Shown: positions 1,507-64,000 of the stretch, piece after piece
How positions within the stretch are numbered: the first letter of the stretch is position 1
Layout: every line of letters starts with the position of its first letter
NCBI GenBank assembly: GCA_008933995.1
Contig: WARS01000033.1
Location: 10,988,287 to 11,052,286, forward strand
Direction: 5' to 3'
DNA length: 64,000 nt
Source of the DNA: Datnioides undecimradiatus
Lineage: Eukaryota > Chordata > Actinopteri > Lobotiformes > Datnioididae
Notes under the pieces: generated by a model
What the model saw: only the letters and a program-made list of their open reading frames with translations
Told to the model about the DNA's origin: nothing
The model's database searches: none
Translations under genes and position numbers: made by a program

Positions 1507-1550
<44 letters not shown>
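1507..1550. repeat. (CA)n microsatellite
   Basis: About 22 uninterrupted CA units in rapgef6 intron 5. Confidence 0.98.
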
Positions 1551-1557
<7 letters not shown>

Positions 1558-4500
1558 CAAAAACAACCCCACCCTGTCAGTCTGTGAATGTCACTCCTGT
1601 CCATCCTGTGACCAGAGTCATGACGACAGCCACAAATTACACTCCCTCTACTATTCCCATGGCCCTAATTAGCTGATTGGCTGCAATGCAGTGTGACTAG
1701 ACCACAGTCCCTCTGCTCTTGTGTGTTTATGCATTTATCTAGAACTGTGTGTGTGTGCCTGCCTGCCTGTGTGTGCACCTTTATGTGTGTTGCTGACAGG
1801 TTTTCTTGTAGTTTTAAAACCGAAGTGTTATACTGGTTGTCCAGGAATTCCTCCATTTTTCATTCCTGAAGGCAGCATTGATGGTACGCTCTCACTGCAG
1901 AGAAATCATGTGTCACTCATCTAGTGCTATAGTGTCTGTTTTGGAGGATTTGGGAAAAGATCTACCTCTGTTTACTCTGTCTGCTCCTTGGCAATATATT
2001 AAAAACAACCCACGACCAAACCCAAGATGCATCAACATATTGTATGTCAGAAGGATTTTCCCAGGAAAGCCTCATCTGAGAACAAATATAAGCATTTTCA
2101 TTCAGTGGGAATAGGTTGTATGGCAACTGCAATGAAAGGATTTTATTTATCAAGGAATGTTACCGATTGATACCCAGTGATCATCTGCTTGCACCGACTG
2201 TTCACTAAGACATCAACCAGGACTTAATCAGATAAAACGTCATTGTGAAATCAGTCCTGAGCCTCGAAAAGGAAGAACTTGGCACATGTGACTCTCCTGA
2301 CCTGAGACTGCCTTGACTTGACAACAGAGGCTAGATCCTGTGGAAACTGAAGAAGCAGCTGCTTTATGGTCACAGAATTTTGTCAGGCATTAAACAATTG
2401 AGAAATTATTAGCCAATGTATTCATTTTAGCAATTCTTAGAACGTGTAAATGACTCTCTGCAAATCAAAGTCGCTTCTCAGTAAGGTTTTGCTTTTATTG
2501 GCTTTTCTGAAATACATTCATGGGCTTTCTATATATATTCTGAGCACAGTGGGCCCAGTAGTGTCATAAATAACACTTATAACACTTTAGAGAAGTATAA
2601 AAGTATCTTTTTTTGGTCTGTTCTGTCAACAGAGCAAACCTGTCTAAATTTAAACGATGTAGTCACAAACTGCCAAATTCAAACATGACATCGTTACCTG
2701 CCTATGGTGAAACACAGAGTACTTTATGTATAACAGTAGATCAAAGTGACAGGGCCTGAGACCTAAACACAGATCCCTTCACAAAGAAATTAAAATATAC
2801 ATTGATTTAAAGTCCTTATTATTTGCACAACTGTGAACCCTCCACATCTAAATTATTGTTACTTTTCACAGGCATCCTAGAAGTGTGCTTCAATATGTGC
2901 CTTCAGACAGTCAAGTCAAACTGCACAGAGCAGATGAGATGGGCAGCAAGTTAAGACAAAGGAACAGCATTGAGAACCACCTGAATTTTCAAAATAAATC
3001 TCACATCTGCATATCTCAGAGTCTGGATCTATAGTGTAGTTTGGCATGTCCCGCCTTCACATACTGTACTTTGTTATTTACTTCCTTTGGGTCTGATGCT
3101 CTGGATCCACTGACCCACCCTGTCCTGCTGTGCTGCAGCTGGCAGAAGCATTATAGACCATTAAAAGGTGGACAAGACAAGGATATGCTTGGCTATTAAC
3201 GACAATAATAATAATATAATCTCATTTCCTTGTTCTCAGACAAACATGCTAATACATGACATGTCTGAATGTGGAGATGCAGACGGAGAAAAACACCTCA
3301 TGTTCTCCCTCAGGCTCTGATCAGCTGATCCACTTTGTCTCTTTCTAGCATTCGCTCCTCTTCTCCTTCTCCCCTCATCACCACCAACATCTCTTTTTAA
3401 GTTTATTTTAGACCATTTTTACTTCCTCAGTCAGTAACGTTTTTAATTTAGGCTGATTTCATCCCTTGCTCCCCAGGGAACTGAGACAACTGAGCTCTCT
3501 GGCTCTTGCACACTGACACAGTATCTTACAATAATACCTGGACAATCAGCAGCAGCAGTGCTCCCTTTTACTGTAGCAACAGCCCCCGAATGGACCCACA
3601 GGGGCATTTTAGGATGAAGTGCCCTGTTGAAAGGGCACATCACTATTACAACCCTGTTCACTGCAGGAGCTTTCAGTTAAAATTATGTTCTTTTGTCTCT
3701 GGAGCTATTGGGGTGGAGTTTGCTGCCCTGAATGTCACTGACAAGTTGAGCATCATCCTCAAGTCTGCTACAGCTACAGTATGACGATCGTTCACACAGC
3801 GAGGAGGAACTGAAACTTCTTAATATGTTTACTGATGTTTAAGCGAAGACAGTGCACTTCTAACTAATCCATTTCTGCTTTTGCACATCTTCCTTCAGAC
3901 AGCTGCAGTTTTTAGACATCACAGTCAAGCAGCATTAACAACGTGTTGACTTTGTGTCACAGTTGTTGCTTTGTCACTGCTCCGTTCTCCATCTCATTTG
4001 TCAAACTTCTTTAGATGCAGTGGTTACGCAAGGAGCAGAAGGGACTTTTGGTGTCTGAGCTTAGCTGCTTGCAGCTCATTGTTTCCTGGGACTATTTGGT
4101 GAAAAAAGGAATTGAAAAAAAGAATATGACGGGTATGCTGCAAGATTAAAGAAAAAAAATGTTGTAATGCGGTCATGATAATTAACAATTATTCATTCTG
4201 AGCATTTTTGGATACATTTTCAATGCACAGGTCATAAATACAACAACCTCCAGCTGCGTTAATATGCTAACATTATGAACTCCGTCAACTGAAACTAAAT
4301 GATACGGTTAATTGCTGCAATCAAGAGTGAAAAAGGGGTTTCTGCAAGAGATACTTTTCTACTATTGAGCTAGAGGGGAAGCACGAGTTCCTGTAAATCA
4401 GGGGGATTTTTCCCAGTAAAAGAAACCGCCTGAAGCACTAAATATAAATACATTCAAAGTGAATGTGGTTTAATCGTTGTGTAACACCAAGAAGTGACAA

Positions 4501-5814
4501 AGAGTGGGAAACTGACACTAATTCACATATAAAAATCTTGCATGGTATTGACTCAGTTCACAGTGAACAGGGTGATAGCCTGTCTAAGGATGATAAGGTT
4601 TCATCACTGTTCCCCTGACTACAGTCATGACAGTTGTGTAATGCTGTACAGTTGTAGTAAAAAACATTTCAGATCATGGTCTCAGGGTTGCAGGGGATAT
4701 CCTGCAACATCTGAGGGTCCTTTGACCTCACTGTTACAGTTCAAGACAAACAGACAAGTAACAACAACAAGGAGGAGTCACAATGTCAAATCTGCCCGGG
4801 GGTTTATATTCCCTATTCAGTAACAGTGGGACTGATGCTACCTGCTGCTTTTGTGTGTAAACCTTTACTGCTTATCCTGTCTCATCCCACCTGATCCCTC
4901 TAGTCCCTCAGACATGAAGACTCAGGAGAGGGAAGATAGGAGAACAGGAAGGATATTTAGAGGAGACGACAAGCACTGCGACCTTGTGGAGGTGAACAGA
5001 AACACACTATATGCAAAGGGTGAGATGCTAAGCTAAAAACTCAAAGAGGTATTCTTACAAGTTTAAAGGAAACATTAACATTATCTAATCATAAAGATCT
5101 ACAAAGTCTCTGTACTCTAAAACTACGCTGGAAGAGAGAAGTTTTAGACATGACATGACATGACTGTACTGTGACTAATCACAAAAGCTACCACTAGACT
5201 AACAGAAGGATGAGCTCTTACAGATTTTGCAAGCTAAACTGAAAGCTCCATTAATGAGTTCTGCAAAAAGAGAGACACATACTTCTGACTTGCTTTCACT
5301 CATCTGGAAATTTTCTTCTCTGACAGAAAAGCAAACTGAAAAAGAAACAGGTTAAACCGGACTTCACTTTAACACTTTAGAACTTTTAAAGTTGCATTAT
5401 AAAACAGACTTAGCGACCCATAATGCAACACTCACTGCAGGAGGTAATGTTTTTTTGCCTCCTTTTTACAGATTTTTACAGGTGAAAGGTGTAGACAGGA
5501 GACGAGGAAAGCAGGAACATGGTACTCATCAACCATTACACTGCTAAAATACCCAGAAGCTGGTGCTACACGGTTACTCTCAAAATGAATACCTGATGAA
5601 GGGAGTATTCAATTTTCTTGCCTTTGAAAAACACATAGGATGCAACTCATATCAAATCAATTATCACCTGATGTTTGGGCTAATTTGGTAAATAAATGTA
5701 TGTATGTGATATATTTAATTCAACTCAAGTATTCTCTACTGTACAATTCAGTTTTAACGGCAAATGGTTTGGCAACATGATTTAGCAATGAAACTCATTT
5801 GAATATGAATTTGA

Positions 5815-6080
5815 AGACAGAGATACGGCACATACAGAGAGAGAGGGAGGAGGGCACACAGGGGGAGATGGGGAGACAGCTGGAAAGGGGGAGAGATGAA
5901 AGAAAGGGAGAAAAAGGATGAACAAGAGGAGAGTACGGTGGAAAAAAAGGTGACAGACATCAAAAAAAGATGGAAAAAATGGGAATGAAATCAAAGGACA
6001 GAGATGGGAGAGAGGTGGGAGGATAAAAAGGGAGGTGCTTTGGGTAGAAACGAACACACCGAGAGAGAGATGCAGTGTTT
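5815..6080. repeat. purine-rich (plus) / pyrimidine-rich (transcript) block next to rapgef6 exon 5
   Basis: About 265 bp of A/G-rich sequence on the plus strand. In the rapgef6 transcript it is a long U/C-rich stretch that starts within 10-30 bases of the exon 5 donor. It includes a four-G-run motif at 5845-5873. Confidence 0.85.
5845..5873 (+). other. putative G-quadruplex motif
   Basis: Four runs of three or more G (5845-5847, 5852-5854, 5861-5865, 5870-5873) with loops of 4, 6 and 4 bases fit G3+N1-7 on the plus strand, the template strand for rapgef6. Confidence 0.5.
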
Positions 6081-6088
6081 CTACTCAC

Positions 6089-6158
6089 CACAATCATTTC
6101 TGACGGCTCCAATGTGATGCATTCACAGCCTCGTCTGCCCCCCAGCTGCTTGCCAAAA
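6089..6158 (-). CDS. rapgef6: rapgef6 coding exon 5 ([20 protein letters not shown])
   Basis: The acceptor is CTCCCTACAG, the donor GTGAGT. The 70-bp exon translates as [20 protein letters not shown] then MIV, ending in phase 0. It corresponds to the phosphate-binding-cassette region of the CNB fold. The canonical FGE...R(T/A)A signature is replaced by FGK...RRG, consistent with a domain that does not bind cAMP in the classic way. The next exon (expected to begin V-D/E...) is not found between 1 and 6088. Confidence 0.95.
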
Positions 6159-9100
6159 CTGTAGGGAGAGCACACAAACACACAAAATAAGTGTTGAGAC
6201 AGAAATAAACCAAAGGCAAAGGTAAGACAAATCACACACACAGGCAACGGTCAATCACATTACTGATAAACAACAGCATTAACCCAATGGCAGTCTGCTA
6301 TGACCTTTCAACAAACTTTTATCATAAAAAATATTTTCCTACATGTGAGAAACTGGTGTTAGAGCAGTACAGTTGAACCAACAGTTTGTGGTGAATGTGT
6401 AACCACCGGCAGTAAAGAGAGCGCAGATCGATAAGCCTTCATGGTCGACTAAAAACACAATCAATGCTTAACCAACTGTGATCGCCACCAAAAATATAAG
6501 CCTAAGTGAGACAGTTAGGAATTTATACACATTTATATATGTTTTATTTTGTCATGAATGTATTTATCATACAAATTGTAAATGGCTATTTAAGTTTATT
6601 TATATTATATTTATATTGATAATTCAGACACTTTTTGTCTTTTTATTTCACCGCAACAAATCAGCTTTTTGAAATGTGTTTGGAACCCTTCCCAACATGC
6701 TTTGCTCCTGTATCTTCAGAGTGGGGCTTTAAGACGACAGAGAAAATGGTAACAAAAGGATTTTACTGTCACCAAACACGTTCTCAAAGTGAACTGAATC
6801 ATCATGCAGAATCTCCATGTGACGAGAACAGAGCAGACAGAGCCACATGGTATCACCACAGCATCAGCTGCTCTCCTCCTGCTTATCAGAGGACACAACA
6901 GCCCAGCCGGCTGCGGCTAAACCTGTGAGGCCTGCACAACAAAGACTCACATTGTGTACAAGATTTTTAACTGCTAACACGGTGTGTTGATCCTGATCTT
7001 GCTCAGTCAAAAATGATCTATGTGAGTGAGGTGGCCTGACGTTTAGAAGTTCAGTGTGTGAAAATTCACTAAGCATCAGGGGTGCTCACCCTTAAGTTCC
7101 TAAAAATAAGGCCCACTTCTGATTGTTAAACACACTCAGGTTTCAGCCCATACATCAAACTGTGCTGTCAGCTGAGCATGTCTGTCTGCCTATGAGAACA
7201 AATTTGACGCACTGATCGTTTAATACCTTAAAATACAAATTAGATTTCTTTATTCGACTGAGTCTGGAGTAGTTTCCTCACACATCTTGTGCTGCTGCGT
7301 TGCATACGCTAACTATGCATGTCTCTTTTGTTTCTCATGCGCCGTCTACAGTACGTTTGTGTGAGTGTGTGAGAGATGCTCCGTCTGAGCGGCTCAGTCA
7401 CTGTGTGCGGTGATCCCTGAGAACAGACAGGCCCGTGAACATGTCTCCCACCCTTTGGCGTGCTAAAAGTGGCAACTCAGCATTGTTTAAAGGCTGAAGG
7501 AGCGGCTGGTTTTAATTATGGAAGCGTGCTGTGCTGGGAAACAGCCAACTTTCACTCTCACATCTCCTCTCTAGTTACGTTCTCACACTGTCTCCTGCAC
7601 AGTCGCTCCCTCCTCCCTCCTTCTTGTTTCTTCCTTTTCTTCCCGTCATCTCTCCCCCGTTTTATGCTTCTCCTTCCACCCAGTGCCATTTTAAAATATC
7701 CCTTTCACTTTAAGCTCTTTTATTATTGCTCCCTGCTGCTTTCAGCCCTTTCCTACCTCCATCTCTCCCATTCCATTCATTTTCATGTATTAATCTTTTC
7801 CTTCCTGTTGTTCTTCCTTCTCTCCTCTCTTCTTATTTTCTGCTTTGCTGTTTTCATCCTCTCTCTCCTTGTCTCATTCTGCATTCCCTCTCATCCTCTC
7901 CTTCTCTCTCCTTACTGTTGGCCTTTCCTCTCTCTGGGCAAAAAAAGCAAACTTTCATCTCATCACATCCTTAATCACAGTTTCGCTCCAGCGCAAACAG
8001 TATTCTCACAATTTCAGCCTCTTTATTTAGTGCTCAGATGAAAGCCTGTCTTCATAATGTGTTCTGATGATGGAAATAATGATGAAAGTCCTTTTTTCTG
8101 TGTTGAATGAGCATATACTCTATTCTTTAGACAAGCAGTATTTTCTATGAAATAGTAAAGGGAAGTGGTTGTGAAATCAAAGCTTTGGTGCGTCACACCG
8201 ATTTCCTCTGAGGGAGGAGTGATAGCCACGGCGACTGGAGATGGAGAAAGCTAAGACTGTCCAACAACGACTATATTGTTGCTGGAGACCAGCATCACTG
8301 TAGAGGAACACGGGCCAAATTTGCAGTGAGTGGATTGATGTGACACTTCACTGTATCCACACGGTTGGACTCAAGATTTCACGAACGAGGTCACCCCACT
8401 GATACAGCCCTAATGCTTTTTGGCAATAAAATTAAGGCTAAAAGGTTTGTATCAGGGTTTCAACAGAGAACTAAATTATTCACTAAATGTGCAAAATATA
8501 AACACGCATTCTTTTCATGAAGTGCACTGGGCAGGTGAATCCAGGGACAGTAAAAGCCTTTATCCCTTTGTATCAAACTTTCTTATTTTAATATTATTTA
8601 TAGCACTGACTGAGAGCGAAGAGTTTCATTAGCCGGAGTGATTTTTTTAAAACTTCAAGCAGCTGAAACGCAAAAATCATTTGACACAATATGTATACTT
8701 TCAACGTACATATATTGCTATTAATGAAGTGAGCATTTCTGAATCTGCTTCCGGGAAATTCTGCTTTTGCTCGCCTCCCTGCATGGAGGTCAGAGGTCAG
8801 TGTCAGCTGCAGAGAGCATTCCTAGAGCTGCGGCAGGTTTACTGTCATCTGTCAATGACGCGTTAGTGGGGAAGATGCATGAAAACACATGGGCTAGATC
8901 ACCACCAACAACCTCCAGCAGTTAAAATTCCCCAAATTGTTTCCCCAAATTGGACTGTGTGTGCTTTGTTTTTTGAATATGAATTGAATGAATTGAATAA
9001 CCTGTTTGATCAGAAAAACAACAACAACAAAAGCCAGAGTCTTGTGTCACAAAGCCTAGTGAGGGAATGAATGAATAAATACAATGAAATTAGTAGACTA

Positions 9101-9310
9101 GGTCTACACAGCAGCCCCCATCAAAGGATGAACACCCAGGCGTGGTTTTAAGAGTTCCCAGGGAGGAATGCAGTCTGCTGGGCTCAGTGTTCTCTCAGAG
9201 CCCTTAGCCTGGAGGTCAGCCCAGCTCTGACAGATCTCTCCACACTCCACTGAGGCGAGACGCATGGTCCCTGTCAGCGCCGCGCAAAGCCTGCCAAGCC
9301 TGTCTCATCA

Positions 9311-9366
<56 letters not shown>

Positions 9367-11286
9367 AGGGTGGTGAGACAGGTCGTGTGATACAAACAGA
9401 AAAAAATACAGTTTTCTATTATTACAGGAGACGCAGAGCTTGTACAATTTTTGGGCCGCTGAACGTAGCCTAATATATCTGCACTCTCAGCGCGGCTTCG
9501 CACGTTTGCTCCTTCGTCTGAACTGCCGCATTCCCGCAAAAGTAGAACAATCAACAGACTTGAGTCAACTCCGAGTACCTGAGTACAAGTGTGTACCCAC
9601 CAAATCATGCTGCTGCCCTGACTGTACTGAGATCTGACACCTCGCTGTTGTCAGCTGGTGTGAATTTCGAAATGGAAAAAAGACAAACCTCTATAACCGC
9701 ACCAGGGCCACAGGTTTACTTTGACAAACACACAGATAAACATACTGATCATGAATCACGGCTACTCCTGTGAGTGAGTTCTGAATAAGCACAACCAAAC
9801 CCGACCCAACTACACATTGATAACGCCAGACAATCTAAAGAAGATGTGTCTGAAGCACCCCCACTAATCTGAACTATAGTTTAATTCACATCACTAAAAC
9901 AATTATGTCTTGGACCCTTTACTTTTTACATGTTGTTGGGTGAGCTATTGTGTTTCTTTTTTCCAAATAACTAATGTCTCCTTGGAGTGGAAAGCTCTTC
10001 CCACAGAAACACTGAAACAGTGCCTGTGCTGGATTTCAGCAGGTGATGATTTCTCTCCCCTCTTTTCCTGCAGAAACAAGTTGTTGGCAGAAGGGAGAAC
10101 AGGTTCAGCTCCGGTCCAGTGACAGCTGCAGCACCCGGGGCAATAAACCATGACAGCCGGCACAGAAACTATGGCCACACACACACACTCACACAAACAC
10201 ACACCCTCAGCTGGTGTCAGAAGCCTGGAAAACCCAGTGATGTGACCAAGAGCGCAACATATTAATAAAACTGAGTCTATAAAACTATGAAATGACATGA
10301 GAATAGAGCCTATACTTATTTAAAATCATATTTAAGTTGTTCTAGCAATTATACCATTTTTGTGTAATTAAGAATCTGATTTAACTCACACTTCTCTGCA
10401 GACTGAACCACAGAATGATTGCAGTGTAATGTTAGTAAGGTGCACTTTAAGTGCTTTGCTAAAGGACGCACTAGCTGCTGTAAGTGTGAAGGAAACTGAA
10501 GTTCACTTCACCACTTCTAGAATCATCTCTTCATGAAATGTCTGATATTCGTTGTTGTGTTGTGTTGTGTTGTGTGGACGTTTGTTGTTGCAGCTCTGCC
10601 ACTACTGAAAATCACTGGTGAAGCTCTGGATCAGTCTCATGAGCAACTACGTAGCCACCATTTAGACCAAAAACAGGCCTTCACTTCAAAACATCAGGGC
10701 CATGCTGGTGGAGGGCGTGGTACTGATGAGAAATCCAGTATGATCCAGGAAGTCCAGTTTGAGTGAAAAGTGACAAATCAGTGAGTGTGAAGGCTTATCA
10801 GAGGCCGGATCACTGCACAGCAGGTTTATAATAATTTGAAATGTGATTTTTACAAATCTTATACGTCAAAATGGTGGATTATTCTTTCATCTTTTGAGGG
10901 TGCTCACATTACAGAGTAATCCAAATGAATGAGAGGCCCGTGCTTTGTCCTCACAGAGTTAAAGTTGGTCAGAATACAACTTGAATAAAGCCTGCAAATC
11001 ATCCTACAAATGACTGATGACAAACTGCTTGCCTGTCCTAAAGCTCTTTTAGAGAGATTTGTTTTTGGCCAACATTAAGAGCCTCACTCCTTCAGTGACA
11101 AGTTACGTGATGCACAGTTTGTAGACAGCGATGCAGGAGAATGAAATTTGAGCAGTCAATAGAAACTTTGAGAGAGTTTGGGCCAAAATTTAAACCAAAC
11201 AGAGATCTGGGTCCGCTTGGCACCAATGTTTCCATGGCAATGATGACCAACAGTAAAGAAAGAAAACCGCAAACCACAGTCACCGA

Positions 11287-11332
<46 letters not shown>

Positions 11333-13404
11333 TTATTCAACTTCTCAGTTCGGCCGTTCTCCCACTCAGTTTTAGCGTCTGGTTGGCTAACACTGACCGC
11401 TCTGACTCACACACACATTAAAGAAGACTGGAGAGCTGGCCAGCTCTACAGACAGACCACCAACACACACACACACACACATTAAACTGCCAGACTCCAA
11501 GTAATGACGTAGTGGGTCATTCAGAAACATTACAATTCATTTGCAAAACAACAGGGAGATCAGTTAAGCATGTCGAAGCGAAACAGAGCACCACCGACAG
11601 CTGCTTCAGAGTCCACTGCAGAGAGTTTCAGTGTCCCCACAACAGAGATAAGGATTCGTGCTCGACTCTAATCTTTACTGTCTAGTAGCGCAGCAAGTTC
11701 TCAGAAAACCAGAAACAAAGAAAAGTGAGCAGCGCTGTAAATGTTTTACTTTTGGAGATTGTTGATAAATCTTTCCTTCAGTGCTGGGCTTCAGTCGTAT
11801 TTTATCAAGTCCAGTTCACATCAACCAAAGAGATCCAAATCTGTTCAAATCTCATCGAGTTTAGCTCAGTTATAGTTGTCAATAATGACAACTCAAAAGC
11901 TCAGTTTAGATTTGTGATCACATGTGGTTGGGAGTTTTTAATGGTCGCAACTCAACTGTTGTTGACATTAATTAAGCTAATGAGTTTTGAGTTTTGACAA
12001 CCAGGAGCTACAGCCTGACAATGGGATTAGCAGAAACAGATATGAAATGTTTATTATTGACTGATAATGATTGTTCTCACATCACAACACAGAAATCAAC
12101 AGCATACCAACTTCCTGATTTCTCCTGACTTAATGGAGTCATATGGAGTCATTAATGGAGGTTCCGAGCAGCGAGTTAAAGAGCTAAAAATAATTATCTG
12201 ATTGGCAGAAAATCCTTCATTTCTCCTGAGAAGTGTCAAAACTGTGAAGAACTAGAAAAACACAGTTCACTAGCAGTCATAGAGTGATGCAGAGCGCAGT
12301 GTATCCATTTACTAAATTTACAGAATTACAATGAATGATCTTAAACTCTTAATCTACAGCTTGTGATGTTGATGACTGGTGACTGAAGCCCGGGAACATC
12401 TTTCCAATATCTCAAAAAATAACAGGGAGAGATCAAAGGTTCGATAACAAATTTGTTAGAATTTATTATACAGATTTTTTTTCGACCAGGAACTAGATCA
12501 AAAATGTCACTGGCTGTTAAAACCGAACCTTATTCCAGCATGCATAATATCGTAGAGGACGCATGCTGAATAAAGTTTTGTGTAGCACAGAGCATGTGCT
12601 TTTGATAATGTGGTGCAGCCAAGTCAGGATTTGATCCCCATTATTTCCTCTTTCTCTCATTGTTTCTGTCACTCCGCACTGCACATGAAATCATTAATAA
12701 CTTACCAACAGAAACCAGCTAAATCTTGTCTGCAAAAACAGTTTAACCAGGAGCCTAGTTCACTTCAGACTTGTTTAATTTTTTACTGTAACGTAAAAGA
12801 GAAGTCTGCTTCTCTTGTGGCTAATCAGTGCAGATAAAAAGGGACAACAAACAGGAGTGTGTTTTGAGAGCTGTGGGGCCCAGTGGTGGTAAGCTATCCT
12901 GCCACAGTGCCGTGGGGAATTCCTGGCTATCCAGTTGGTTAAATGATGGCAGGCAGGAAATGGAGCATGCTGGGTTTGAAGAATGCACAGAGACAGAGAG
13001 AGGGAGTTTTGAAAAATCTGAAGTGAATTATACGTCAATCACGGCTACTTTACTGCGACTGTCGCTGGACTAAAAGATCCACAAAACTTCAAGATCACTA
13101 ACCAGGAACAGGAATTTTGGGGGTCCGCTTCTTTGGATTCCTTGTTAGTGAAATATTATCCAGCATATTATCCACAATGAGGAGCGAGGCAGTACAATAT
13201 TCCAGTAATCCAGGCAGAGATTCAAGAGTGTTTGGTTTGTACTCCAGAGTGGGAACAAGAGAAAAGTTTCCACAGAAAGCAGAAGTAGGTGACTGTCAAG
13301 CCTTTTAGTTTGTCTTAAACTGAGGGAGGAGTGCACGTTTCCTCCCGCTCTACTCTGTTCTGTCTGTCTGTCTGTCTGTCTGTCTGTCGGCTCCCGGGAG
13401 GTGT

Positions 13405-16700: not shown

Positions 16701-19700
16701 GAGCTCATGTCAGCAGAAAGCCATCATCCCTCCAGGACAGACAGTATCTGTGGTTGGTTATGAGTAGGGATACAGACGATGGGAGCAGAGACTGAGTAAT
16801 GTGGAGCATTTCGAGGAGGAGATCAGAGGTGCACCATAGTGGGAAGAGTGACAACTTATGGAAAGATTGTAATGTTTTTGCAACTTATTACCTGAAAAAA
16901 AGACAAGGCAGTTTCTGTGTCATACTAACAATGCAAACAATTTCTAGGTGCATTGAAATAATATGGGTAGAGCGTATTCACTTTCACATCTAGCTGTACC
17001 CTTGTGACAAGGTCACAAACTTTGGACAAAACACAGGGTTACATATCTACAAGGTGACACAGCATGACAGCTACAACAGCTACACAGAGGTTTTCATTGA
17101 AGAACTTAATCACCATCTGATTAATGATGTCATCACAAAAGGGTTTTCTCCATCAGACTTTTTTTAACTTTTAAAACACAGACCTCCATTTACATCATGA
17201 TTATACTTAGTCTATTTAAATTATGGTGCAGTGCATAAAACTGATGCCATCTTTCATCCATGGTAAGTCAGTGACAAATTACTTACATCCAGCTTGGAGC
17301 TGCAGGATTGACCACAGGTTGTGTAAAGGAAATTAAGATTTAAAATATGGGTGTTAAGATAAAATCTGTGAACTGTGCTGATTAAATTCTTCATATAAAA
17401 TGAATGAAATCGAATAATAATGCCGTATTCCTATGGTGTACTCACTTTTGTGCAGGTGAATGTTCAAAGTTGTGAATGCATTTGTTCACATTGTTCTTTG
17501 GGCTGATTTGTTTTCTTCATTATGTCATTTTGGAAAACTAAAGCATAACCATGTTAATTTTAGATGAGAGTGACATAATGCAATCAACCCACTGCATCTC
17601 AGGTGTAAGTCTGGTGTTGATCTGAATGCAAGCTGCCTGATGTGATTAGGAACAGCTTTTTATTTCCCAGTTATTTTCTTCTTTTGTTGAGTAGTTTTTT
17701 AAATCAAGTTCTGAAACTCAAACTCAGAAATTTCATAAAAGACGATACTTGGTCTACACACTGAAGCTGAAAATAAATGGAAAAAATACAATTTCTTTAA
17801 TTGGTTTGGGGGAAAATGATGGCAATATGCGCAAAAAAGATTTTTTGTGGAATTGTACAATAAATACAGTACAATATAATTAACCCTCTATATGGTTTAA
17901 ACACTTTTGCTGCGGTTCTGCAAAAAAGAGGCAATAATGTTGACTGTAAGAAGCAAATGGAGGAACTCCAAAAAGTGATCTCACCATGGTGCAGAGCGAA
18001 AGACAAGAAAAAGCAAACTGTAAGCTGGTTAAACTTACTCAAGGTAAACATGAAGTCATGTTGAACTCCTCAAAAATGTGGATCTGCAGATTTTTGCGTT
18101 TGAAGATACATTTGGCGATTGGGAATGTTAAGGAAACTTTATAAATTAACCAACTAATTGAAAAATAACTGACAAATTACACACAAAATTATTATTAGCT
18201 GCAGTCCCACTACTTCAAGATTATTGAACGTTGTAGAGGGACGATCAACATAATCATGTTGGAAATAAGAAAGAACCTATTTGGTTCTTGTTGTATTGTT
18301 GGGGTTTAACTGAGGCCAACGTGATTAACTTCTAATACGGTTTCATAGGAGAGACCTTGATTGCTTTCATCCGTTGTCTGTAGTGTGTGTGTTTGTGTGT
18401 GTTTTGTGTGCATAACAGCTGACTAATTGGACATGGCAGGCGCTTTGCTCTGGGTTAAGGTACTTAAGACTAGCCCCTGGTAGAGAGACACGGGATCGTA
18501 TTGGTGAGAGAGAGTTTGTGTGTTTATGTGATGGCAAATTAAACTCCTGAGTGTCTAATGTGATTCTAGCGAGCATGACAATACATCACCAGCATGTGAA
18601 GCTTCTCTCTTATCCTTTCATCCATCTCTGTCCTCCCTCTGCCTCTCACACTTCCTCCACATCCTCACCTCATCCCTCTTTTACATCACTTCAAATTCTT
18701 CATTTCTCCCCCTCCATTGTTTTGTCTCTCCTCACTCTCGACATTGCAATCCGTTCCTCCTCCTTCCTTATTAGCATATTCCCCTCCTGTTTTCCCCGCA
18801 GTCCTCTCCTCTCATGTCCTCTCTTTAAATATGCCTTCTTACATCTCTGCTGCCACTTCCACGCTTCTCATCTCATCATCCACCTTCTCCTTCTAATCAG
18901 ACTTCCTCTCTCTGCAAATCGACACTGCGTATGATGCCGAATGACTTATGTTTACCATCTGACTCATCCATCTCGGTGTCCATTCACCAACACATCCTGA
19001 CAGACAGGCCATCAGCCAGTCAATCAGCATTACTAGTGCTAGATCTTTGATCACACAATGGTAATTTAACCCTTAAAAACCAAAAGACTTGAGCTCTAAC
19101 TGGGTTTGAAGCATTATTTTAATGCATCTTTAACACAAATGTTTCCTTGTATTAATTTTTTCTTGCATAGTTTTGAACTCTGAAACTTAGGAATATGTCT
19201 ATACTAAACAAGGCGCTGCTTGAACTGATCATAAGTAGATGACAACTGTTTAACTCAGATTGAGGATATCTGTTTCATGCCTTTTCAAAGAATATCATCT
19301 TATTATCAAAGAAAATCTCATTAAAAGATGAAAACCAACAATAGACTGAAAACAGCTGTATCAGAGGTTGATACATCTTATTTTTGCGTGGCATAGAGCT
19401 CCAAAGACCAAGATTAGTCCAGATAGTTTAAAATATGTACACATTCCATTAAAGGCAATGAGAAATGCTGAACAATGCCGTTTCCAGCTGTTGATTCTAA
19501 ATAACTATTATATTTTGTCATTAAATCAGTGAGTACATCTGAGGCCTGTTTTAGAAGATTTAGTTCTTAGTGCCACTGAAGGGGCCCATTTCATCTCTTT
19601 CCATCAATCTTGTTGGACAGTTCTGAGAAATAGTGCTTTTTTTTCTTTTTAATAGGATTCGGTGGCAACAATAAAGCAGAATATCACAGCCTTATAGTTT

Positions 19701-55917: not shown

Positions 55918-55996
55918 TCATAGCAGGATCTGGGCCACATAGGGGGAGTGAGTGCTGGCTACTGCAGCCAACAGGGGAAGGTCGCTGGACTCGATT
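55918..55996 (-). CDS. fnip1: fnip1 last coding exon with stop codon
   Basis: The acceptor is GTTTGCAG. One base completes the Gly codon, then [20 protein letters not shown] and AQILL, then TGA (revcomp of 55918-55920). The Leu-Leu carboxy end is invariant in FNIP proteins as I remember them. The 3' UTR follows directly. Confidence 0.95.
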
Positions 55997-58900
55997 CTGC
56001 AAACACACCAGAGCAAAGATCAGAATACGACAAGATCTAAGTGCCCTACTTCAAATGATGAATGAACATACAGAAGTTCTGAAGCCTTCAGCACCAGTTT
56101 TCTTTGGACCAGTTTTTTATCTTTTTTGATGTGATATACTTCTTGCTTGTACATTTTGAGGTCTGACGCCTGCCTGCACCTTTTTGCAGAACTCTTGACT
56201 ACATCATATCAAAGCTAAAATTATGATTTTTTTTCTGGCATTGCACAGGATTTTATACAGAACACTGATTTTCATCTATAATATACAGTGGTAGCTTGAC
56301 TTACGAGTTTAATTCATTCCCTGATGGAGCTCATAACTCAAGTCAGTCATATGTCAAATCATTTTTCCCCAATCAAATGAATTGAAATGCTATTAATCCC
56401 TTCCGCGCCCCCAAAAAAACACTGCAATTTTTTTTTGCTACATCTTTTTAAATAAGAAAAGTGTATTATAAATAACGAATATTGTATAAAAAACAATACT
56501 ATAGAATGTACTGCAATAAACTGGTTTTATTAAGTATAATGTACAGCATTTACTTTGGAGCTCAGACAACTTGAGGATGCTGATGGAGGTGGAGGAGAAA
56601 AGCTGAACTGAATAACTGAATCTTATTCGCTAATTTTTGCGAATAAGATTTCGCCACGCTTTCCTCACTTTCATCTGCAGCTGTCTAGCTATCAAGTGAG
56701 ACACGGGATGCTGGGCGGATGCTACGGCGTTCACTGTGGCGTTCGCTACGCCAACTAGCGGTGGGGTATCTGAAGCTGGCTCGTAACCCGAATTTTAGCT
56801 CGCAACTCAAAGCAAAAAATCGGCCGAGAGACGGCTTGTATCTTGTAAACTCGTTAGTTGGGACGCTCGTAAGTCAAGGTACCACTGTATAGCTATAGAT
56901 ATAGATAGATAGCTTAGCTCCTACTTGTGTGTCTGTAATAGTTTTATTATGATGCTATACAGCAGTTGCTAGTTGAGGATAAAGGTAAACTGCTTACCCT
57001 AAGACCATGCCCAATTCTTTAACATGGACTCTTGTCTGGCCCTTCAAATACTCAGCAAGCATCTTACTCTTGAAGTAGATTTCCTGCAGGCGGTCCTCAA
57101 GGTGCATTATACACTGAAGAGGAGAGAGAAAGGCACATTGTTGGTAAAGCACAAAGAATTAAAGAGGTCAGCACCTTGACTATAAAGAGTTGTGAAACCA
57201 GCTTCTCTAGTAATAGCAGTGGGGCTGACTTACAAAGTTAGGTGAAACATTGAGTTTGTAGAGCTGGTGAGTGGACTGCAATAAGCTGGAAACCAGACTG
57301 GACACCAGGACTTCCTTTCCCAGCTTGTTGACATCTGTGGCTCGTCTCTGACTGCTGGCCACCTGCACCGTCCACTTGTCAGTGTCTGCTATAATGCAGA
57401 CGGCCTCTGCTATGGGCTCATCCAATACTGGATGCTAGAGTACAAAAACAGCCATTTTAAAATACATGCCCAAAGGAAAACTGCTGCTGAAATGGTAAAT
57501 GACTGAATCTAATCAGCAGTAATAAGGTAACTACATGTTTTACAGTGAAACACACACACCGAAAATGTGCATCCCCCAAAGAACAGGTCTAAACCACCGA
57601 GTCCTTTACCTGAACAGCATGGGTTAATTCAGCCATGAGGCTCTGCCTGAGCTTTTCGTCGCTGGGCATCCCATGCAGAACAAAGTCTGGCACGTAGGTG
57701 GGACAATAGCCTCCAAACAGTGATCGGCCAAAATTTGCAATACTTGGCTTTGAGTAGTTCTCCACCAGCTTTGACCTGCAAATCAAACATAAGACAAGAG
57801 ATACTTGCTTTTTCTTTTCAAATCGATCAAAAACAGATCGAGTGTTGCCTGTTATTGTTAAGAGTGGTATTCGTGCCAAGGCAGCTCATGATTTATAAAC
57901 AGGAAGTGTGTCTGTGAATAGCTGGATCTACTCACCCCGGGAAAGGCACCAGCACTTCTTCCTGCCAGTCCTCTGTCTCCTCACTCTCACTGTCCCCGAG
58001 CGCGCTGTCAGAACTCTCATTGCGTGGTATCTCCCAGTCAATGATGGGCACCGCTTTGCGCTTTTGGTCCTCTTTGCTGTTGCTGCTTCCATCCAGGGGG
58101 ACGGGGACTGATAATAGAAGACCCTTGTCCTGCTCAGCAGAACAGCCCCTGCAGCAGCAGGTGTCGGAGGAATCTGTGGACCCACACCTGCACCTCCTCT
58201 GGACATCTGACAAAGTGTCTCCCTTCCTTCTGGACCCTACTTGTCCACTACCTGAACCTAAACAGAGACTCAAACCCTGACTCCTGACTGCACCCTGAAA
58301 ACTGTGACCCCCAGTGTCAGCAGGCCGGGAGACTCCCGAGGGGTCCAACAAGTCTTTGTGCATACTGTCTGTGGCGTTGGCCTCCTGCCGTTTGGCCACA
58401 TCGTCTATAGTCCTTGTCTCCACAGGGTTCTCCAGGCTGAAATACTCGTCAAAGTCGTCCATACAATTCGGATTCCAGTGAGGCATTTTACTAGACACCC
58501 GCTGTAGGGCTGGAGCCACCTTGGTCTGTTTGGTTTGGTCCTCTGATGCACTGGTGTGGCTGGTCTTTGAATCTGCTGCTGTCTGCAGATGCTGGGGTTG
58601 CTGTTGATAAAGTTGCCCTTGATGATGCTGCTGTTGTTGCTGTTGGAGGAGCAGCTGCTGGTAAAGCAGATGTTTGTCCTTAAGGTGTTTCTTGTGCTTT
58701 TTGATTTCCTCCTCGACCTTCTTTCTGCGGCTCTCCGTGTCCGACTCAGGAGACATGGAGTCTCCGATGAGGAAAGTGACTTTTGTTGCTGGCTCATCCT
58801 CCTCTGTTAAAGTCAAAGCCATGGGCCCCATCACTATGTTTCCCAGTACTGGTACTGGCACTGCAGCAGCCACGTTCTTATCTGGGGGCTTCTTCTCTGG

Positions 58901-61900
58901 AGGGAATCCCAAAGGCCGAGGAGCCAGTAGTCTTGTGGGCTGGTTACCATTGCCTGCATCCATCCCAGCCTCTGCCCCAGAGTTTCTATCCTCTGCGGTG
59001 ATGGGAGTTGGGGGTGGAGTCAATGTGCACGCAAGTGTTGTTGGTACAGATGGGACTATAAGCCTCAGATCGCCCTTGGTCTCTGTATCCAGCACACAGA
59101 CCTGCTCCCTGGGGGAGGCTGAGCCGACACGCAGCACCGTCTCCAGTCGGGCTTCTGTGGCCAGCGGGCTGCTAGACTCCCTGCGCAGCTCCCTGGGATC
59201 AGATGCTTCTGTAGTCCTGATAACAGGGTTGTTGACCTGGCTGTGCTCTGTCTGAAGCACACTGCTCCTAGAGCCTTGACTCTCGCTGCTGTCCTCCTCA
59301 TCTTCCTCATCCTCCTCATCCTCATCTTCCTCCTTTGGTGTATCCCCAGCACCGTGCTCCACCTCTGTGTCCGTGTATGTGCTGCTCTGGAGGCTGTTGT
59401 CTGAACGGTAGCTGCTGTCCTCTGCCTCAGTCTGTCGACCATGGGCTCCCTGCGACAAGTAGTCCCCACTAGGTTTGTGGACAGTAACCAGGACATAGTC
59501 TGACTCCTCCACCTCTCCTTTTCTTAGAGAGGTGGTGATGAGAGAGCCAGGCATCACAATGGCCTCATCCTCAGCACTGTCCAGCATGTGGGTCTCCAGC
59601 AACTCAGAGCAGCGGATGAAGTAGGTGAGGACGTAGAGGAGTCTCTGGACCAGCTCCTGTCTGCGGCCAACCACCACTGTTCTTGACAGCCGCACTGGTG
59701 ACCCAATGGACCCGTATAGGTCGCCTGCACACCATGATGGGAAAAACCAAAACAAGACAAAACACAGGCATCACTGAGCCAGTCTTTAAATGCAGTGATT
59801 TGCAACAGGTGTTATTTATAATAATTTGTTAGACATCAACAAAAAACAATTTTCTTTAGTTTGTGAGGTTTCATATTTTATCTCTGGTGGGTGTGAAGTC
59901 CCACAAAATGATTTTTGAGTTTGAATAATAATTAAATATATTCAATTATTCTTTTCAAAACCATCCATCTGAACACTTGTTTTTACAATACCATTCTTGT
60001 TTTGCTCTTCTTTTATCTTTTTTCATATTGGCTTTTTTCAACACTCCAGTGTGCAATTCTCATCTCTGACCACCAGGTGTCCCCACAAACTCAGTTTCTA
60101 TATCAGAATCAGAATCTGCTTCATTAGCCAAGTATGTGTACACATACAAGGAATTTGACTACTGTTTTTTTTTTTTCAATGCTTTCAATGTGCTAACACA
60201 GGAACAGAAGTACAGCTAAGAAAGACAACAGAGCTGAACAAACAAAGATCTGTAAAAGGATTGTTATGCACACAAGTATATGAAAAAACAGGTATTTACT
60301 CAATGAATACACCAATGACCAAGACAGTTCACATTCTACGTTTCCAGTGTCACTTGAGGTGAAAGTGTGTACTACTGAACATATGCTTTAAGGTGTAGCC
60401 ATATATATGAGGTTACATGCTCATGCTATACGTGCACCTAAATCCACTTATACATCAGCAAATTATTTCACAGAAATGCAGCTTATGGATTTCCAACATG
60501 TAGCATGTACCACTGGAGGAAACCATGTTTCCTATCGTCATCAACCAGTGAAGTACATGCACAGTGTCCGGCCGATACCCAAGTCTTAAAATTTTATTGC
60601 AGATGCAGCATTGTTACATCTACATTCGAAACTGCACATTTGTCACACCTGGGATTTCTTCTTTCCTGTGAAATGCTGCAACAGAGATGACTTACAGATA
60701 ACTACAGGAACTACATTGCACATGAGATTATGGGACAAATAGCTACATAAAGATTATGAAAATCTAACACAGGTGTTCTGATGATCAACAAAAGATACTT
60801 CCAACTCACTCTGTGGTGTGTGTTCATGTGTCTGTGTGTGTCTGTGTGTGTGAAACCCTCACCTAGCTGTGCCCAGAGTGGGTTGTACGGGTGCGTCTTT
60901 GCCAGCATGTCGACGCTCTGGGAGGAGTGTTTCTCAAGGAAGATCTTGATTGGAGGCTGCCCATTGGGCATGACGGTGGGCACCCAGGCTAGATGATTGG
61001 TCAGGATAGCTGTCAATAACGCAGGTAGGAATCTGGAATATCAGACATAGGTTGGTCAGAGGAGAACAGGGAAGGATCACAATGTTTAAGAGTGAAACCT
61101 CTTAGCCAGTCTCTCTCTAAAACTACAGTTTCCCTTCTGACCTTGTTTGATTGGGTCAAAGGTTCTCTCTACATGAAAAACTTAAGTCATGTGTTTCTTA
61201 CTGAGCTGGAAATACATACATTGTTGCAACACACTAACACAGATATATGCAGATACACAGATAAATGACAAGCACATGCACGCGCGCGCGCTATGCTGCT
61301 ATGCTTGATTCACTTCTCAGTTCTGACCACAAGCGTCTACTTCCCTTCCTGTCTCATGACTCAACACTGTCATGGCATTCGAGTTCAATCACGTACAAAA
61401 AAGCGACTGCAGTAGTCATCAAAACCATCAGACAGTCATGGGAATACTAACAAGATGCCTCAGAAAAAACATGATGTGATACAGTAAGTTCGGTGGTTGC
61501 CAGGGAGACACAATGCTTCATTCATGAGTCACACACACACACAGTCGTGTGGTGGTCATCCTAACCAGTGCTGGTGGAAATAACGATTTAAACTGAGAAG
61601 TAATACTGATAAAGAAAAGCCAATGGTTGCCTAGGAGATGCAGTTTCTATTCATAGTCAACATTTAGAGATGGTGCAGGGATCTAGAGAACATGAGAAAT
61701 TACTCTGGGCCATGTAGTACGCTATGGTTTTATATACAATTTCTAATACTGTACTTCAGTCATTTTTAAGCAAACAGTGTGGATGACACTGTGAAGTCTA
61801 AAGATGAACTTGCTGCTCATGTTTTCCACTCTAGTCTCTTGATTTTTCAGCCATGGTTGTTACAACTGTTGGTGCTATTCTATTTTTTTGGTTGCTTGTG

Positions 61901-62906
61901 CCAAAAACACATTGAACACAGCTGTCATAAACATTCATTCATTTCATCAGATACTAGTATTCATTAGAGCCTGAATGCTTCTGACATGCAGAACACGTAG
62001 TCTTCATTTCTACTGTGTCACTCAGTAAACAAGAACAACACACATTGAAAAATGTTGCCAAGATCTACTAATGTAATGTAATGTAATGATTATAATTCAG
62101 CTCAGTGGACTGGATGCTAATTTAATCAGCTCTTCTGAATACGTGTGCTATGTTCAATAAAAGCCTTGCTACCAATTCATAAATGTACAATTCATAGTGG
62201 TTTCGCATGTCTTTGTAACAGCAACAATAAGCAGTTAGAGACTGGCAGGGATCTTCTCATTCACGGCTCTCTAAGGCAGACAAATAAATGCCAAGAGGGT
62301 GAAATGCTCACTTTGTGTGTGTGTTCAAGTGTGAGAAAGGGAGATATAGACCATAGAATGTGTGTTTGAGAGACACAAAATGACCAGTGTGAGTGTGATC
62401 GTGTTTCCCTGTTGATACACAACCAGAAAGCAGAAGGAAACAAAACATGTGGAACGTCCATACACGTGGAACATTGTTTAATGTCTAAGTGCTGCTGTGC
62501 ATGTCTCTCCCTCTTTATGCCAGTTTAAATCTGCCTACTGTCTTAATGCTTTCAGCTCAAAGAAGATCCAGAGGGATCTGGTTTCCCCAACAGGTGTGTT
62601 TGCTGTCTCCATAAAACTGCTGAGAACCACTATGCGATATGATAGATGTGTTTGAAAATGTATTCTGATAAAGTCTTGCTCCTCTCTTCAGCTCCTGTGA
62701 TATTTGTAGAATTTCAGAGTCTGGTAGCAGACCAGAAACAAGTACAAGCAACACTCAACTGGTTCTTGGAGGCCTGCTCCATCAGCAGGGACAGTTCCCT
62801 CATGAACTGCCCACAGAGCTGGTTCTTCTCCGATGCTCCAGACATCATAGTGAGCCAGACGGGTTCAGCAACGCGGGGCATGGTGTAGAGGTCGCAGATG
62901 GTCATT
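55918..62906 (-). CDS. fnip1: fnip1, C-terminal part (seven last coding exons), 5' exons outside window
   Basis: Folliculin-interacting protein 1 is a longin/DENN protein. It binds folliculin (a RagC/D GAP on the lysosome), AMPK and HSP90 (as co-chaperone). Seven exons can be joined: 62906-62760, 61032-60863, 59724-57936, 57775-57610, 57434-57234, 57113-56998 and 55996-55918. All junctions keep frame and give about 888 residues ending [11 protein letters not shown]-stop. The choice of FNIP1 over FNIP2 rests on [36 protein letters not shown] and the casein-kinase-2 serine cluster [14 protein letters not shown], which carries the extra S-x-S that FNIP2 lacks. The N-terminal longin part and the start codon lie beyond the right edge. 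The middle region is disordered and poorly conserved with mammals. Conserved core segments (DENN) are in the first two exons, the start of the large exon, and the last four exons. Identification is from remembered family sequences, not a search. Confidence 0.95.
56286..56887. mobile_element. non-autonomous TIR DNA transposon (mariner/pogo-Tigger-like) with TA target duplication
   Basis: The left end begins CAGTGGTAGCTTGACTTACG. The right end, reverse-complemented, begins CAGTGGTACCTTGACTTACG. That is 19 of the first 20 bases matching, and the match extends to 22. The element is flanked by TA on both sides (56284-56285 and 56888-56889), as for Tc1/mariner/pogo transposons. It is 602 bp, with no transposase frame inside, so it needs a partner for movement. 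Inner copies of the 'CTCGTAACTC' theme recur near the right end (about 56780-56810). The superfamily call is by TA duplication and general resemblance to known fish repeats. Confidence 0.8.
56887..56914. repeat. short GATA-type tandem repeat
   Basis: TATAGCTATAGATATAGATAGATAG-type repeat abutting the right end of the transposon. Confidence 0.6.
56998..57113 (-). CDS. fnip1: fnip1 coding exon ([20 protein letters not shown])
   Basis: The acceptor is ACTCTTCAG-like (CTTCAG), the donor GTAAGC. The 116-bp exon translates as [20 protein letters not shown], then [19 protein letters not shown], with the last Gly split GG|A. It is too short and too internal to be found as a free open frame; it was located from the conserved C-terminus of the family. 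Confidence 0.94.
57234..57434 (-). CDS. fnip1: fnip1 coding exon ([20 protein letters not shown])
   Basis: The acceptor is TACTCTAG, the donor GTAAGT. The exon is 201 bp, exactly 67 codons (phase 0-0), so it could be skipped in frame. It translates as [20 protein letters not shown], then [20 protein letters not shown], then [20 protein letters not shown] and LNVSPNF. This is the best conserved FNIP C-terminal segment and matches FNIP1 almost residue for residue. Confidence 0.95.
57610..57775 (-). CDS. fnip1: fnip1 coding exon ([20 protein letters not shown])
   Basis: The acceptor is GATTTGCAG, the donor GTAAAG. The 166-bp exon translates as [11 protein letters not shown], then [20 protein letters not shown], then [20 protein letters not shown] and HAVQ. 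It opens the conserved FNIP C-terminal (dDENN-like) block. The first base completes a Gly codon from the large exon. The intron before it is only 160 bp. Confidence 0.93.
57936..59724 (-). CDS. fnip1: fnip1 large coding exon, disordered region with CK2 sites
   Basis: This 1789-bp exon has 595 codons plus split ends. The acceptor is GTGTGCAG, the donor GTGAGT. Codons 1-83 are conserved ([55 protein letters not shown]). A long disordered stretch follows with an acidic run (about 59289-59337), [25 protein letters not shown], a Lys/Glu helix running into a Gln/His-rich tract (about 58583-58663), [19 protein letters not shown], a Cys-rich segment ([18 protein letters not shown], about 58138-58197) and [14 protein letters not shown] (about 57970-58020). 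The last matches the serine relay phosphorylated by CK2 in human FNIP1, which modulates HSP90 binding. There is no cysteine between codon 39 and codon 210, so the mammalian FEM1B degron cysteines are missing. An in-frame ATG at 59755-59753 lies in the upstream intron and is not a start. Confidence 0.95.
59725..60862 (-). other. fnip1 intron with a LINE/SINE-tail-like repeat
   Basis: This 1138-bp intron (donor GTGAGG, acceptor GTGTGCAG) contains no coding signal. At about 60095-60290 it holds a fragment starting TATCAGAATCAGAATCTGCT, followed by CATTAGCCAAGTATGTGTAC. That resembles the abundant fish 'AGAATCAGCTTTATTGGCCAAGTATG' repeat. The rest is unremarkable AT-rich sequence plus a small TG-rich tract (60829-60853). 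Confidence 0.7.
60095..60290 (+). mobile_element. fragment of a dispersed fish retroelement tail
   Basis: Recognised from the motif TATCAGAATCAGAATCTGCT + CATTAGCCAAGTATGTGTAC + ACATACAAGGAATTTGACT, then a poly-T run. Many fish genomes carry thousands of copies of this motif near the 3' ends of LINE/SINE-type elements. Exact family and boundaries are uncertain. Confidence 0.5.
60863..61032 (-). CDS. fnip1: fnip1 coding exon ([20 protein letters not shown])
   Basis: The acceptor is TATTCCAG, the donor GTGAGG. The 170-bp exon translates as [20 protein letters not shown] followed by [20 protein letters not shown], then [17 protein letters not shown]. This is nearly identical to the vertebrate FNIP1/2 core. 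It starts with the last base of a Gln codon and ends with the first base of a Gly codon (G|GC) completed by the large exon. Confidence 0.93.
61033..62759 (-). other. fnip1 intron, no gene seen
   Basis: This 1727-bp intron has a non-standard donor (GTTGAG) and acceptor TATTCCAG. It contains a short alternating CG tract (about 61276-61290), a short CA tract (about 61532-61543) and a TAATG pentamer run (about 62071-62090). Nothing else is recognised. Confidence 0.75.
61276..61290. repeat. alternating purine-pyrimidine (CG)n tract
   Basis: CACGCGCGCGCGC run, a potential Z-DNA former, in a fnip1 intron. Confidence 0.85.
62760..62906 (-). CDS. fnip1: fnip1 coding exon ([15 protein letters not shown])
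   Basis: The acceptor is ...ATCTCCAG and the exon opens on the third base of an Arg codon, then ATG ACC ATC TGC GAC. The translation includes [20 protein letters not shown] and ends [10 protein letters not shown]. The last Gln codon is split CA|A with the next exon. Length is 147 bp (phase 2 to phase 2). This is the start of the conserved middle (DENN) block. The donor is GTTGAG, which departs from the usual GTRAGT, but the frame and the conserved ASKNQ-FLPAL junction both require it. No earlier exon is visible between 62907 and 64000. Confidence 0.9.
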
Positions 62907-64000
62907 CTGGAGATGAGGTACGGCAAGGGAGGGATGAAAGAGGGAGAGGGCATGGACAGAGCGAATGAAAGAGAATGAGGGGAAAAGAGAGAAAACAGAC
63001 AGAGAGAACAGATACGTTATTGTCTCTCGGGGTAAACAAAAGAGATTTCAGTTCACAGAGCTTCGCTGTCTGCACTGAGGGCATGGGAGACCCTTGGGTG
63101 TGTGTGTGTTTGTAACAGTCCGACAAACTTGCGCGCACTCACACACAACCCTGTCTCTTGCCCAGTACAGTGTGTTTTTGTGTGTATATCTATCTGTGTG
63201 TGGCTCAGTTGGGGCATTTGTCCATTGAGAAGGACTAGAGTTTCCATGGAACGTGGGCTGTGTTGGTGAGCACGTCTCGGCTGGGGGCCAAGCTTTGACA
63301 CAGGCTGAAGGGAATTTCTGCAGTTTGAGGAATGTTGAGAATCAGGCGTTTTCAGTCAGAGTCGATATATGGACTATGGCTGAAGTCTGGGTTTCAATAT
63401 GGGCGAATGTACACATAATCAATAAAAAGGTCACGGTTTTTATTCAAGGATGATGTTTTATCTATTTACTCTTAATTCTTGCAAACATACAAACAAAAAT
63501 CAATATTACAATGGCAATCTAATTGTACACAGCTAAAACAACATTAAAACCAAATTAATGTGAAAGTGTGATAAAGTATACAAAATAACAATCAAATAAA
63601 CATACTAAAATAAACTGTAATGATGTAACCAGCTGCTATCACCTCAGGTGAAATGTAATAAGACTTTGCAGATCATAGTGACAAGGAATAATAACTCTGT
63701 ACTGTTTTCCAAAGCTTGAATTAGTCTTACTGGAAATTGCAGGAGATCTCAAGCCATAAACAAGGTTAATTCTGCAGTTAACTCACTTACAATCTCTTTG
63801 ACCTATGATGAACCCAGTGACAGAGGAGATGCAGACAGGCTGCATGCTGAGAGAAAGCACAGGTGTCATACAGTGAACATGACCTTGACAAGAACTCCAG
63901 TATTCCAGTAATCAAGCTATTTTAGGTAATGCATTTTTTCCAAGGAAGACAGGAAGACCATGTTTGGTCTTTGTTTATGGGGTTAATAAGAAGTTACCAA
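62907..64000 (-). other. fnip1 intron, partial; no further exon visible
   Basis: The sequence upstream of the first recognised exon to the window edge shows no frame resembling FNIP1. It contains a purine-rich stretch (62925-63010) directly next to the acceptor, which is pyrimidine-rich in the transcript, as expected of a polypyrimidine tract. The rest is AT-rich. Confidence 0.7.

What the first reader, a model, noticed from the sequence alone, without database searches (positions are those of the whole stretch)
59336..59608. The FEM1B reductive-stress degron of FNIP1 is absent from this fish fnip1 exon
In human FNIP1 the reductive-stress degron (residues about 562-591; Cys580, Cys582, Cys585, His587, zinc-bound to FEM1B) lies about 63 residues after the conserved FIRCSEL, just past the conserved ESEYVLVT segment. 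This genomic exon is continuous through that place: codons 1-83 are conserved, then [20 protein letters not shown] follows. There is no cysteine at all between codon 39 and codon 210. So the C-x-C-x-x-C-x-H cluster is missing, not moved by an intron. The second Cys-rich stretch (about 58138-58197) aligns with a different, later human Cys-rich segment. If real, this lineage either lacks FEM1B control of FNIP1 or uses another site. The sequence absence is direct; the human positions are from memory of the published degron.
Basis: partly seen in the sequence, partly recalled or inferred. Interest (0 to 1): 0.75.

Follow-up and report, generated by a model that had tools for sequence, protein, structure and literature searches.

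The report
Fish FNIP1 exon lacking FEM1B degron
A fish version of the metabolic regulator FNIP1 keeps a neighbouring control motif but lacks the cysteine tag by which mammalian cells destroy it under reductive stress, so this stress switch may not be shared by all vertebrates.

Summary
The exon (57936-59724, minus strand) is an intact FNIP1 exon: 189 bits against a solved FNIP1 chain, 119 against FNIP2 (chains taken as human from recall). Codons 1-82 match FNIP1 without a gap (64 of 82 identical), including the GABARAP-binding LIR. The next 30 codons, in the same register as the degron, match it at 5 of 30. The four zinc-ligand places read E, S, R and D. The stretch from LIR to TKVTFLIG is 71 residues longer than in FNIP1, so a simple deletion does not explain it. 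No unspliced CxCxxCxH lies on the minus strand.

The later Cys-rich stretch aligns with a different FNIP1 Cys-rich stretch. It holds CCCRGCSA, three of four ligands at the right spacing, but that is barely above chance.

Not shown: that the degron was lost. The degron peptide finds no FNIP2 chain either, so a later gain in tetrapod or mammalian FNIP1 fits the few sequences at least as well. Nor is it shown that a second fnip1 copy or other fishes lack it: the genome search did not complete, and no other fish sequence could be reached.

The parts
57936..59724 (-). large fnip1 exon, 1789 bases, open throughout
   Evidence: ORF 57932-59770; splice sites; FNIP_M end matched by Pfam PF14637; FNIP1 best in PDB
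59483..59509 (-). EESDYVLVT, counterpart of the FNIP1 LIR (Y583/V586), kept
   Evidence: ungapped alignment; LIR residues from PMC11582615 passages; FNIP2-GABARAP chains 7lsw (E 0.0064) and 7lt6 (E 0.58) hit
59387..59476 (-). 30 codons in register with the degron; 5 of 30 identical, no Cys
59399..59422 (-). places of the four zinc ligands CxCxxCxH, here E-D-S-S-Y-R-S-D
59292..59334 (-). acidic tract ([14 protein letters not shown]) coded by an imperfect 15-18 base tandem repeat, in the lengthened stretch after the degron site
58139..58192 (-). second Cys-rich stretch [18 protein letters not shown]; with the next codon it holds CCCRGCSA (58136-58159), 3 of 4 degron ligands
   Evidence: aligned with FNIP1 884 and on; motif scan and shuffles
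60863..61032 (-). preceding fnip1 exon ([19 protein letters not shown]...LWAQLG)
   Evidence: ends read by eye
62760..62914 (-). earlier fnip1 exon ([21 protein letters not shown]...), 5' end not fixed
   Evidence: assigned from recall of FNIP1, not by a search of its own
57610..57775 (-). following fnip1 exon ([16 protein letters not shown]...)
   Evidence: assigned from recall of FNIP1
57234..57434 (-). fnip1 exon [15 protein letters not shown]...
   Evidence: assigned from recall of FNIP1
56998..57113 (-). fnip1 exon [19 protein letters not shown]...
   Evidence: assigned from recall of FNIP1
55918..55996 (-). last fnip1 coding exon with stop codon
   Evidence: Pfam FNIP_C end, 17.9 bits, below its cut-off of 25

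Best explanation
This is the large middle-loop exon of a fish fnip1 gene that looks intact. The stretch just after the LIR, which carries the FEM1B zinc degron in the solved mammalian FNIP1 chains, has a different, longer sequence here, without cysteine at the degron place. Shown: the motif is absent at the orthologous place, absent with all four ligands anywhere in the exon, and there is no sign of a deletion. Inferred: this protein is not recognised by FEM1B through joint zinc binding, so reductive stress does not remove it that way. FLCN-FNIP control in this fish would then rest on routes whose sites are kept, such as the GABARAP-binding LIR and the [12 protein letters not shown] segment, which holds the place of S938. 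It would resemble mammalian FNIP2, which is reported not to be degraded under reductive stress.
For: FNIP1 over FNIP2 by 189 to 119 bits for this exon and 113 to 87 for the stretch with the exon before it. 64 of 82 codons identical up to the degron start, then 5 of 30. All four ligand places substituted. No unspliced CxCxxCxH on the minus strand. LIR tyrosine to TKVTFLIG is 237 residues in fish and 166 in the FNIP1 chain (positions), so the site is diverged and lengthened, not deleted. Codons 84-312 searched alone found no FNIP1 at E up to 10, so the whole stretch has diverged. Downstream exons are open, with GT/AG ends and a stop. [12 protein letters not shown] is kept in the alignment; S938, a site of sugar addition that affects HSP90 binding and degradation (PMC12026037 passage), falls in it by my count. 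FNIP1 but not FNIP2 is degraded in reductive stress (PMC9312812 passage), and no FNIP2 chain is found by the degron peptide.
Against: Function is inferred from sequence alone. FEM1B contacts other parts of FNIP1-FLCN (PMC10943247 passage). The second Cys-rich stretch holds CCCRGCSA, three of four ligands, which could serve in part. A motif split by an intron, or in a spliced alternative exon made of two halves, would escape the scan. One individual and one locus only; a second copy was not excluded.
Confidence: 0.72

Rival explanations
1. The degron is a later gain in lobe-finned or mammalian FNIP1, so the fish never had it; this is the ancestral state rather than a loss.
For: Of the FNIP forms that could be compared, FNIP2 chains are not found by the degron peptide and this fish FNIP1 lacks it, while the mammalian FNIP1 chains have it: one gain against two losses.
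Against: Very few sequences, and FNIP2 was judged by the lack of a hit, not by reading it whole. A review calls the three cysteines invariant (PMC12026037 passage) without saying among which species.
Confidence: 0.45
2. The degron was present in the bony-fish ancestor and was lost in this lineage or in this copy, perhaps with a second fnip1 copy from the teleost duplication keeping it.
For: Teleosts often keep duplicates (recalled). The stretch is lengthened, with an acidic repeat, as in a fast-changing region.
Against: No second copy was seen, but the own-genome protein search did not complete (13 tries), so this is no test. Nothing here places the degron in the ancestor.
Confidence: 0.35
3. 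The degron function has moved to the second Cys-rich stretch, whose CCCRGCSA gives three of the four zinc ligands.
For: CxCxxC spacing is exact, and it is the best BLOSUM62 placing of the 12-residue degron core in the exon; 73 of 5000 whole-exon shuffles give a 3-of-4 match. BLASTP of the degron against the exon finds only this (15.0 bits, E 0.21).
Against: The His is Ala. 514 of 5000 local shuffles give as much, and 62 of 1000 shuffled exons reach the core score. The full 30-residue degron places best elsewhere, at codon 150. The stretch has a counterpart (FCKC...CKTC) in the FNIP1 chain that also has the true degron.
Confidence: 0.06
4. Artefact: assembly error, pseudogene or missed exon.
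For: None found.
Against: No N in the window, open frame, GT/AG splice ends and intact downstream exons; the interval is longer than in the FNIP1 chain, not shorter.
Confidence: 0.04

Closest known systems
Mammalian FNIP1 with the FEM1B reductive-stress degron (PDB 7roy, 8uy3, 8je2, 9j64)
   Same: Orthologous exon; same register through the LIR and into the first residues of the degron; later Cys-rich stretch and [12 protein letters not shown] segment kept
   Different: No CxCxxCxH; 5 of 30 degron residues alike; stretch from LIR to TKVTFLIG 71 residues longer
Mammalian FNIP2 (PDB 6nzd, 6ulg, 8dhb)
   Same: Has the LIR; not found by the degron peptide
   Different: Paralogue; scores 119 against 189 bits for this exon
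Other FEM1B ligands (Arg/C-degron CDK5R1; Pro/C-degron BEX3 and CCDC89)
   Same: Same receptor in mammals (passages)
   Different: C-terminal degrons; this protein ends in ...VAQILL, with neither Arg nor Pro at its end

Membership tests
FNIP1 (folliculin-interacting protein 1) | FNIP middle domain | tested here: met
   PF14637 55.6 bits, cut-off 25, profile end 189-229 of 230
FNIP1 (folliculin-interacting protein 1) | closer to FNIP1 than to FNIP2 | tested here: met
   189.4 against 118.6 bits; 113.2 against 87.1
FNIP1 (folliculin-interacting protein 1) | conserved synteny (RAPGEF6 next to FNIP1, recalled) | tested here: inconclusive
   No Pfam domain of a neighbour at E up to 0.01 on the minus strand, three frames of 11001-55997 and one frame of 1-12000; plus strand not searched
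FEM1B reductive-stress degron | CxCxxCxH after the LIR | tested here: not met
   E101, S103, R106, D108 at the four places
FEM1B reductive-stress degron | CxCxxCxH elsewhere in the exon | tested here: not met
   best is CCCRGCSA, 3 of 4 ligands
FEM1B reductive-stress degron | upstream LFKESEE part (papers' 568-574) that touches FEM1B (PMC10943247 passage) | tested here: not met
   5 of 30 identities over the degron, summed BLOSUM62 score 0
FEM1B reductive-stress degron | zinc-dependent binding when cysteines are reduced | not testable with these tools
   bench test needed
GABARAP-binding LIR of FNIP | Y-x-x-V core with acidic residues before it | tested here: met
   [10 protein letters not shown]76 and V79 at the places of Y583 and V586; binding not tested

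The most novel reading that the evidence does not exclude
The FEM1B-FNIP1 reductive-stress switch is not a general vertebrate device: ray-finned fishes have no zinc degron in FNIP1. It arose in the lobe-finned line, beside an older LIR, and fishes answer reductive stress by another route.
Probability: 0.35. Interest if true: 0.62.

Novelty: new variant of a known kind. Interest (0 to 1): 0.45.

Why it matters
FNIP1 degradation by CUL2-FEM1B is described as a sensor of reductive stress. A fish FNIP1 without the sensor motif limits how far zebrafish or medaka results can be read onto that pathway. In zebrafish, loss of Keap1 raises glutathione and increases lysosomes as loss of Flcn does, and the authors discuss FNIP1 as a reductive-stress sensor (PMC10235939 passages); whether zebrafish Fnip1 has the degron decides whether that link can hold. 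It also offers a natural experiment: two short motifs side by side, one kept and one absent.

Tried and rejected
Assembly deletion: rejected, because the interval is longer than in the FNIP1 chain (positions) and the window has no N. FNIP2 mistaken for FNIP1: rejected by score. Degron on another frame or in an intron: one unspliced CxCxxCxH in six frames of 64 kb, on the plus strand at 18390. On the minus strand within 55.7-64 kb, five 8-mers hold at least 3 of 4 ligands; only CCCRGCSA is in the coding frame of this exon. A motif split by an intron was not tested. Moved degron: considered, weak. Synteny to tell duplicates apart: no neighbour gene recognised. Relatives in viral contigs and genome contigs: 191 and 414 stretches matched a pattern, none confirmed; these collections hold viruses and prokaryotes, so this says little. 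Structure prediction and fold search were not used.

Literature: eight searches. Some lists were cut: 25 of 32 papers shown, 20 of 4,319 (none of those 20 holds the word FNIP1), 10 of 25, 9 of 10. No listing or passage that I saw discusses the FNIP1 degron in fish, but the search was narrow. The two original degron papers are not held (one search used a wrong DOI for the 2020 paper), and they may show species alignments that I could not see. Of the papers that I cite I saw search listings and passages only, none whole. The species of the PDB chains is not printed by the tool; human and mouse are recalled.

Full report
What the exon is. The minus-strand frame 57932-59770 is open for 612 codons. 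With the splice acceptor at 59726-59725 and the donor at 57935-57934 it is an exon of 1789 bases. Against all PDB chains the exon's best match is FNIP1, 8je2_H, at E 1e-54 and 189.4 bits; three FNIP2 sequences follow at about 118 bits. I take these chains as human from recall; the tool prints no species. Pfam finds the end of the FNIP middle domain. A search of 60000-63998, in the frame that holds the exon before it, also prefers FNIP1 (113.2 against 87.1 bits). The exons after it are open, with ordinary splice ends and a stop codon at 55918-55920. I read boundaries by eye and recognised the last exons from memory; Pfam's FNIP_C match to the very last one is below its cut-off (17.9 of 25 bits). 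Three of the introns near it are short, about 120-175 bases by the coordinates, which suits a teleost, but the species was not determined here.

What is missing. The peptide of the published degron is found in 8je2_H at 590-619, in 7roy and 8uy3, and in 9j64; no FNIP2 chain appears at E up to 10. The fish exon aligns with 8je2_H without a gap from 508 to 599 (508-596), so the register runs into the degron. Fish and FNIP1 agree at 64 of 82 places before it and at 5 of 30 within it. The zinc ligands become E101, S103, R106 and D108. Cysteines of the exon are at codons 38, 209 and further on. Codons 84-312 by themselves find no FNIP1 at E up to 10, so the whole stretch, not just the motif, differs. 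The distance from the LIR tyrosine to TKVTFLIG is 237 residues here and 166 in the FNIP1 chain, so there is no net deletion.

What is kept. Immediately before the site, EESDYVLVT corresponds to the LIR, whose Y583 and V586 were mutated to break GABARAP binding (PMC11582615, passages); solved FNIP2-GABARAP chains match the same stretch weakly (E 0.0064 and 0.58). After the site, the [13 protein letters not shown] stretch and the [12 protein letters not shown] segment are kept. By my count on the alignment the latter holds S938, a regulatory site named in a review (PMC12026037, passage). The same review calls the three degron cysteines invariant; that does not extend to this fish gene. The mapping of Y583 shows that the papers' degron numbers, 562-591, run 28 lower than the chain's; that the cause is a shorter isoform is my inference.

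The second Cys-rich stretch. [17 protein letters not shown] aligns with FCKCIETVPQDSCKTC of the FNIP1 chain (from 884; E 1.4e-8 for the chain), so it is an old feature of FNIP1 that there coexists with the degron. In the fish it has a C-x-C-x-x-C spacing followed by Ser-Ala where the degron has Ser-His. Shuffles give as good a motif in 73 of 5000 whole exons but in 514 of 5000 local shuffles, and 62 of 1000 shuffled exons reach the same core score, while the whole 30-residue degron places best at codon 150, not here. I rate a moved degron at 0.06.

Reading. The plain reading is that this fish FNIP1 cannot be held by FEM1B through joint zinc coordination and so resembles FNIP2, which is reported not to be degraded in reductive stress (PMC9312812, passage). 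That is inference: FEM1B makes further contacts with FNIP1-FLCN (PMC10943247, passages). Whether the motif was lost or never gained cannot be settled here. With only the mammalian FNIP1 chains, the FNIP2 chains and this gene, one gain is cheaper than two losses, but an outgroup would overrule this. A teleost duplicate with the motif is not excluded: the genome search did not complete (14 calls, listed under Tried and rejected), and scans of viral and prokaryote collections found no relative.

Verdict. The claim about a lineage, and about function, awaits an alignment that is simple for anyone with vertebrate genomes. Interest is moderate because the result is one locus; it would rise if the motif proves absent from ray-finned fishes, since the reductive-stress role of FNIP1 is invoked in zebrafish work (PMC10235939, passages).

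Noticed in passing
58139-58192 (-): A C-x-C ... C-x-x-C stretch shared by this fish FNIP1 and the solved FNIP1 chain (FCKC-8-CKTC), with no role that I know of; it may bind a metal.
   Followed up: partly
59292-59334 (-): Acidic run [14 protein letters not shown] coded by an imperfect 15-18 base tandem repeat, in the stretch that is longer than in the FNIP1 chain.
   Followed up: no
58592-58660 (-): Gln-rich run ([23 protein letters not shown]) in the fnip1 exon that the alignment leaves partly as gaps.
   Followed up: no
1-55000: No neighbouring gene recognised next to fnip1: no Pfam domain of a neighbour on the minus strand (one frame only for 1-11000), no tRNA, no Rfam match at gathering score. 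Plus strand not searched for proteins.
   Followed up: partly
18390-18413 (+): The only unspliced CxCxxCxH in six frames of the window (CLCVFCVH), with stop codons close by on both sides; taken as chance.
   Followed up: partly
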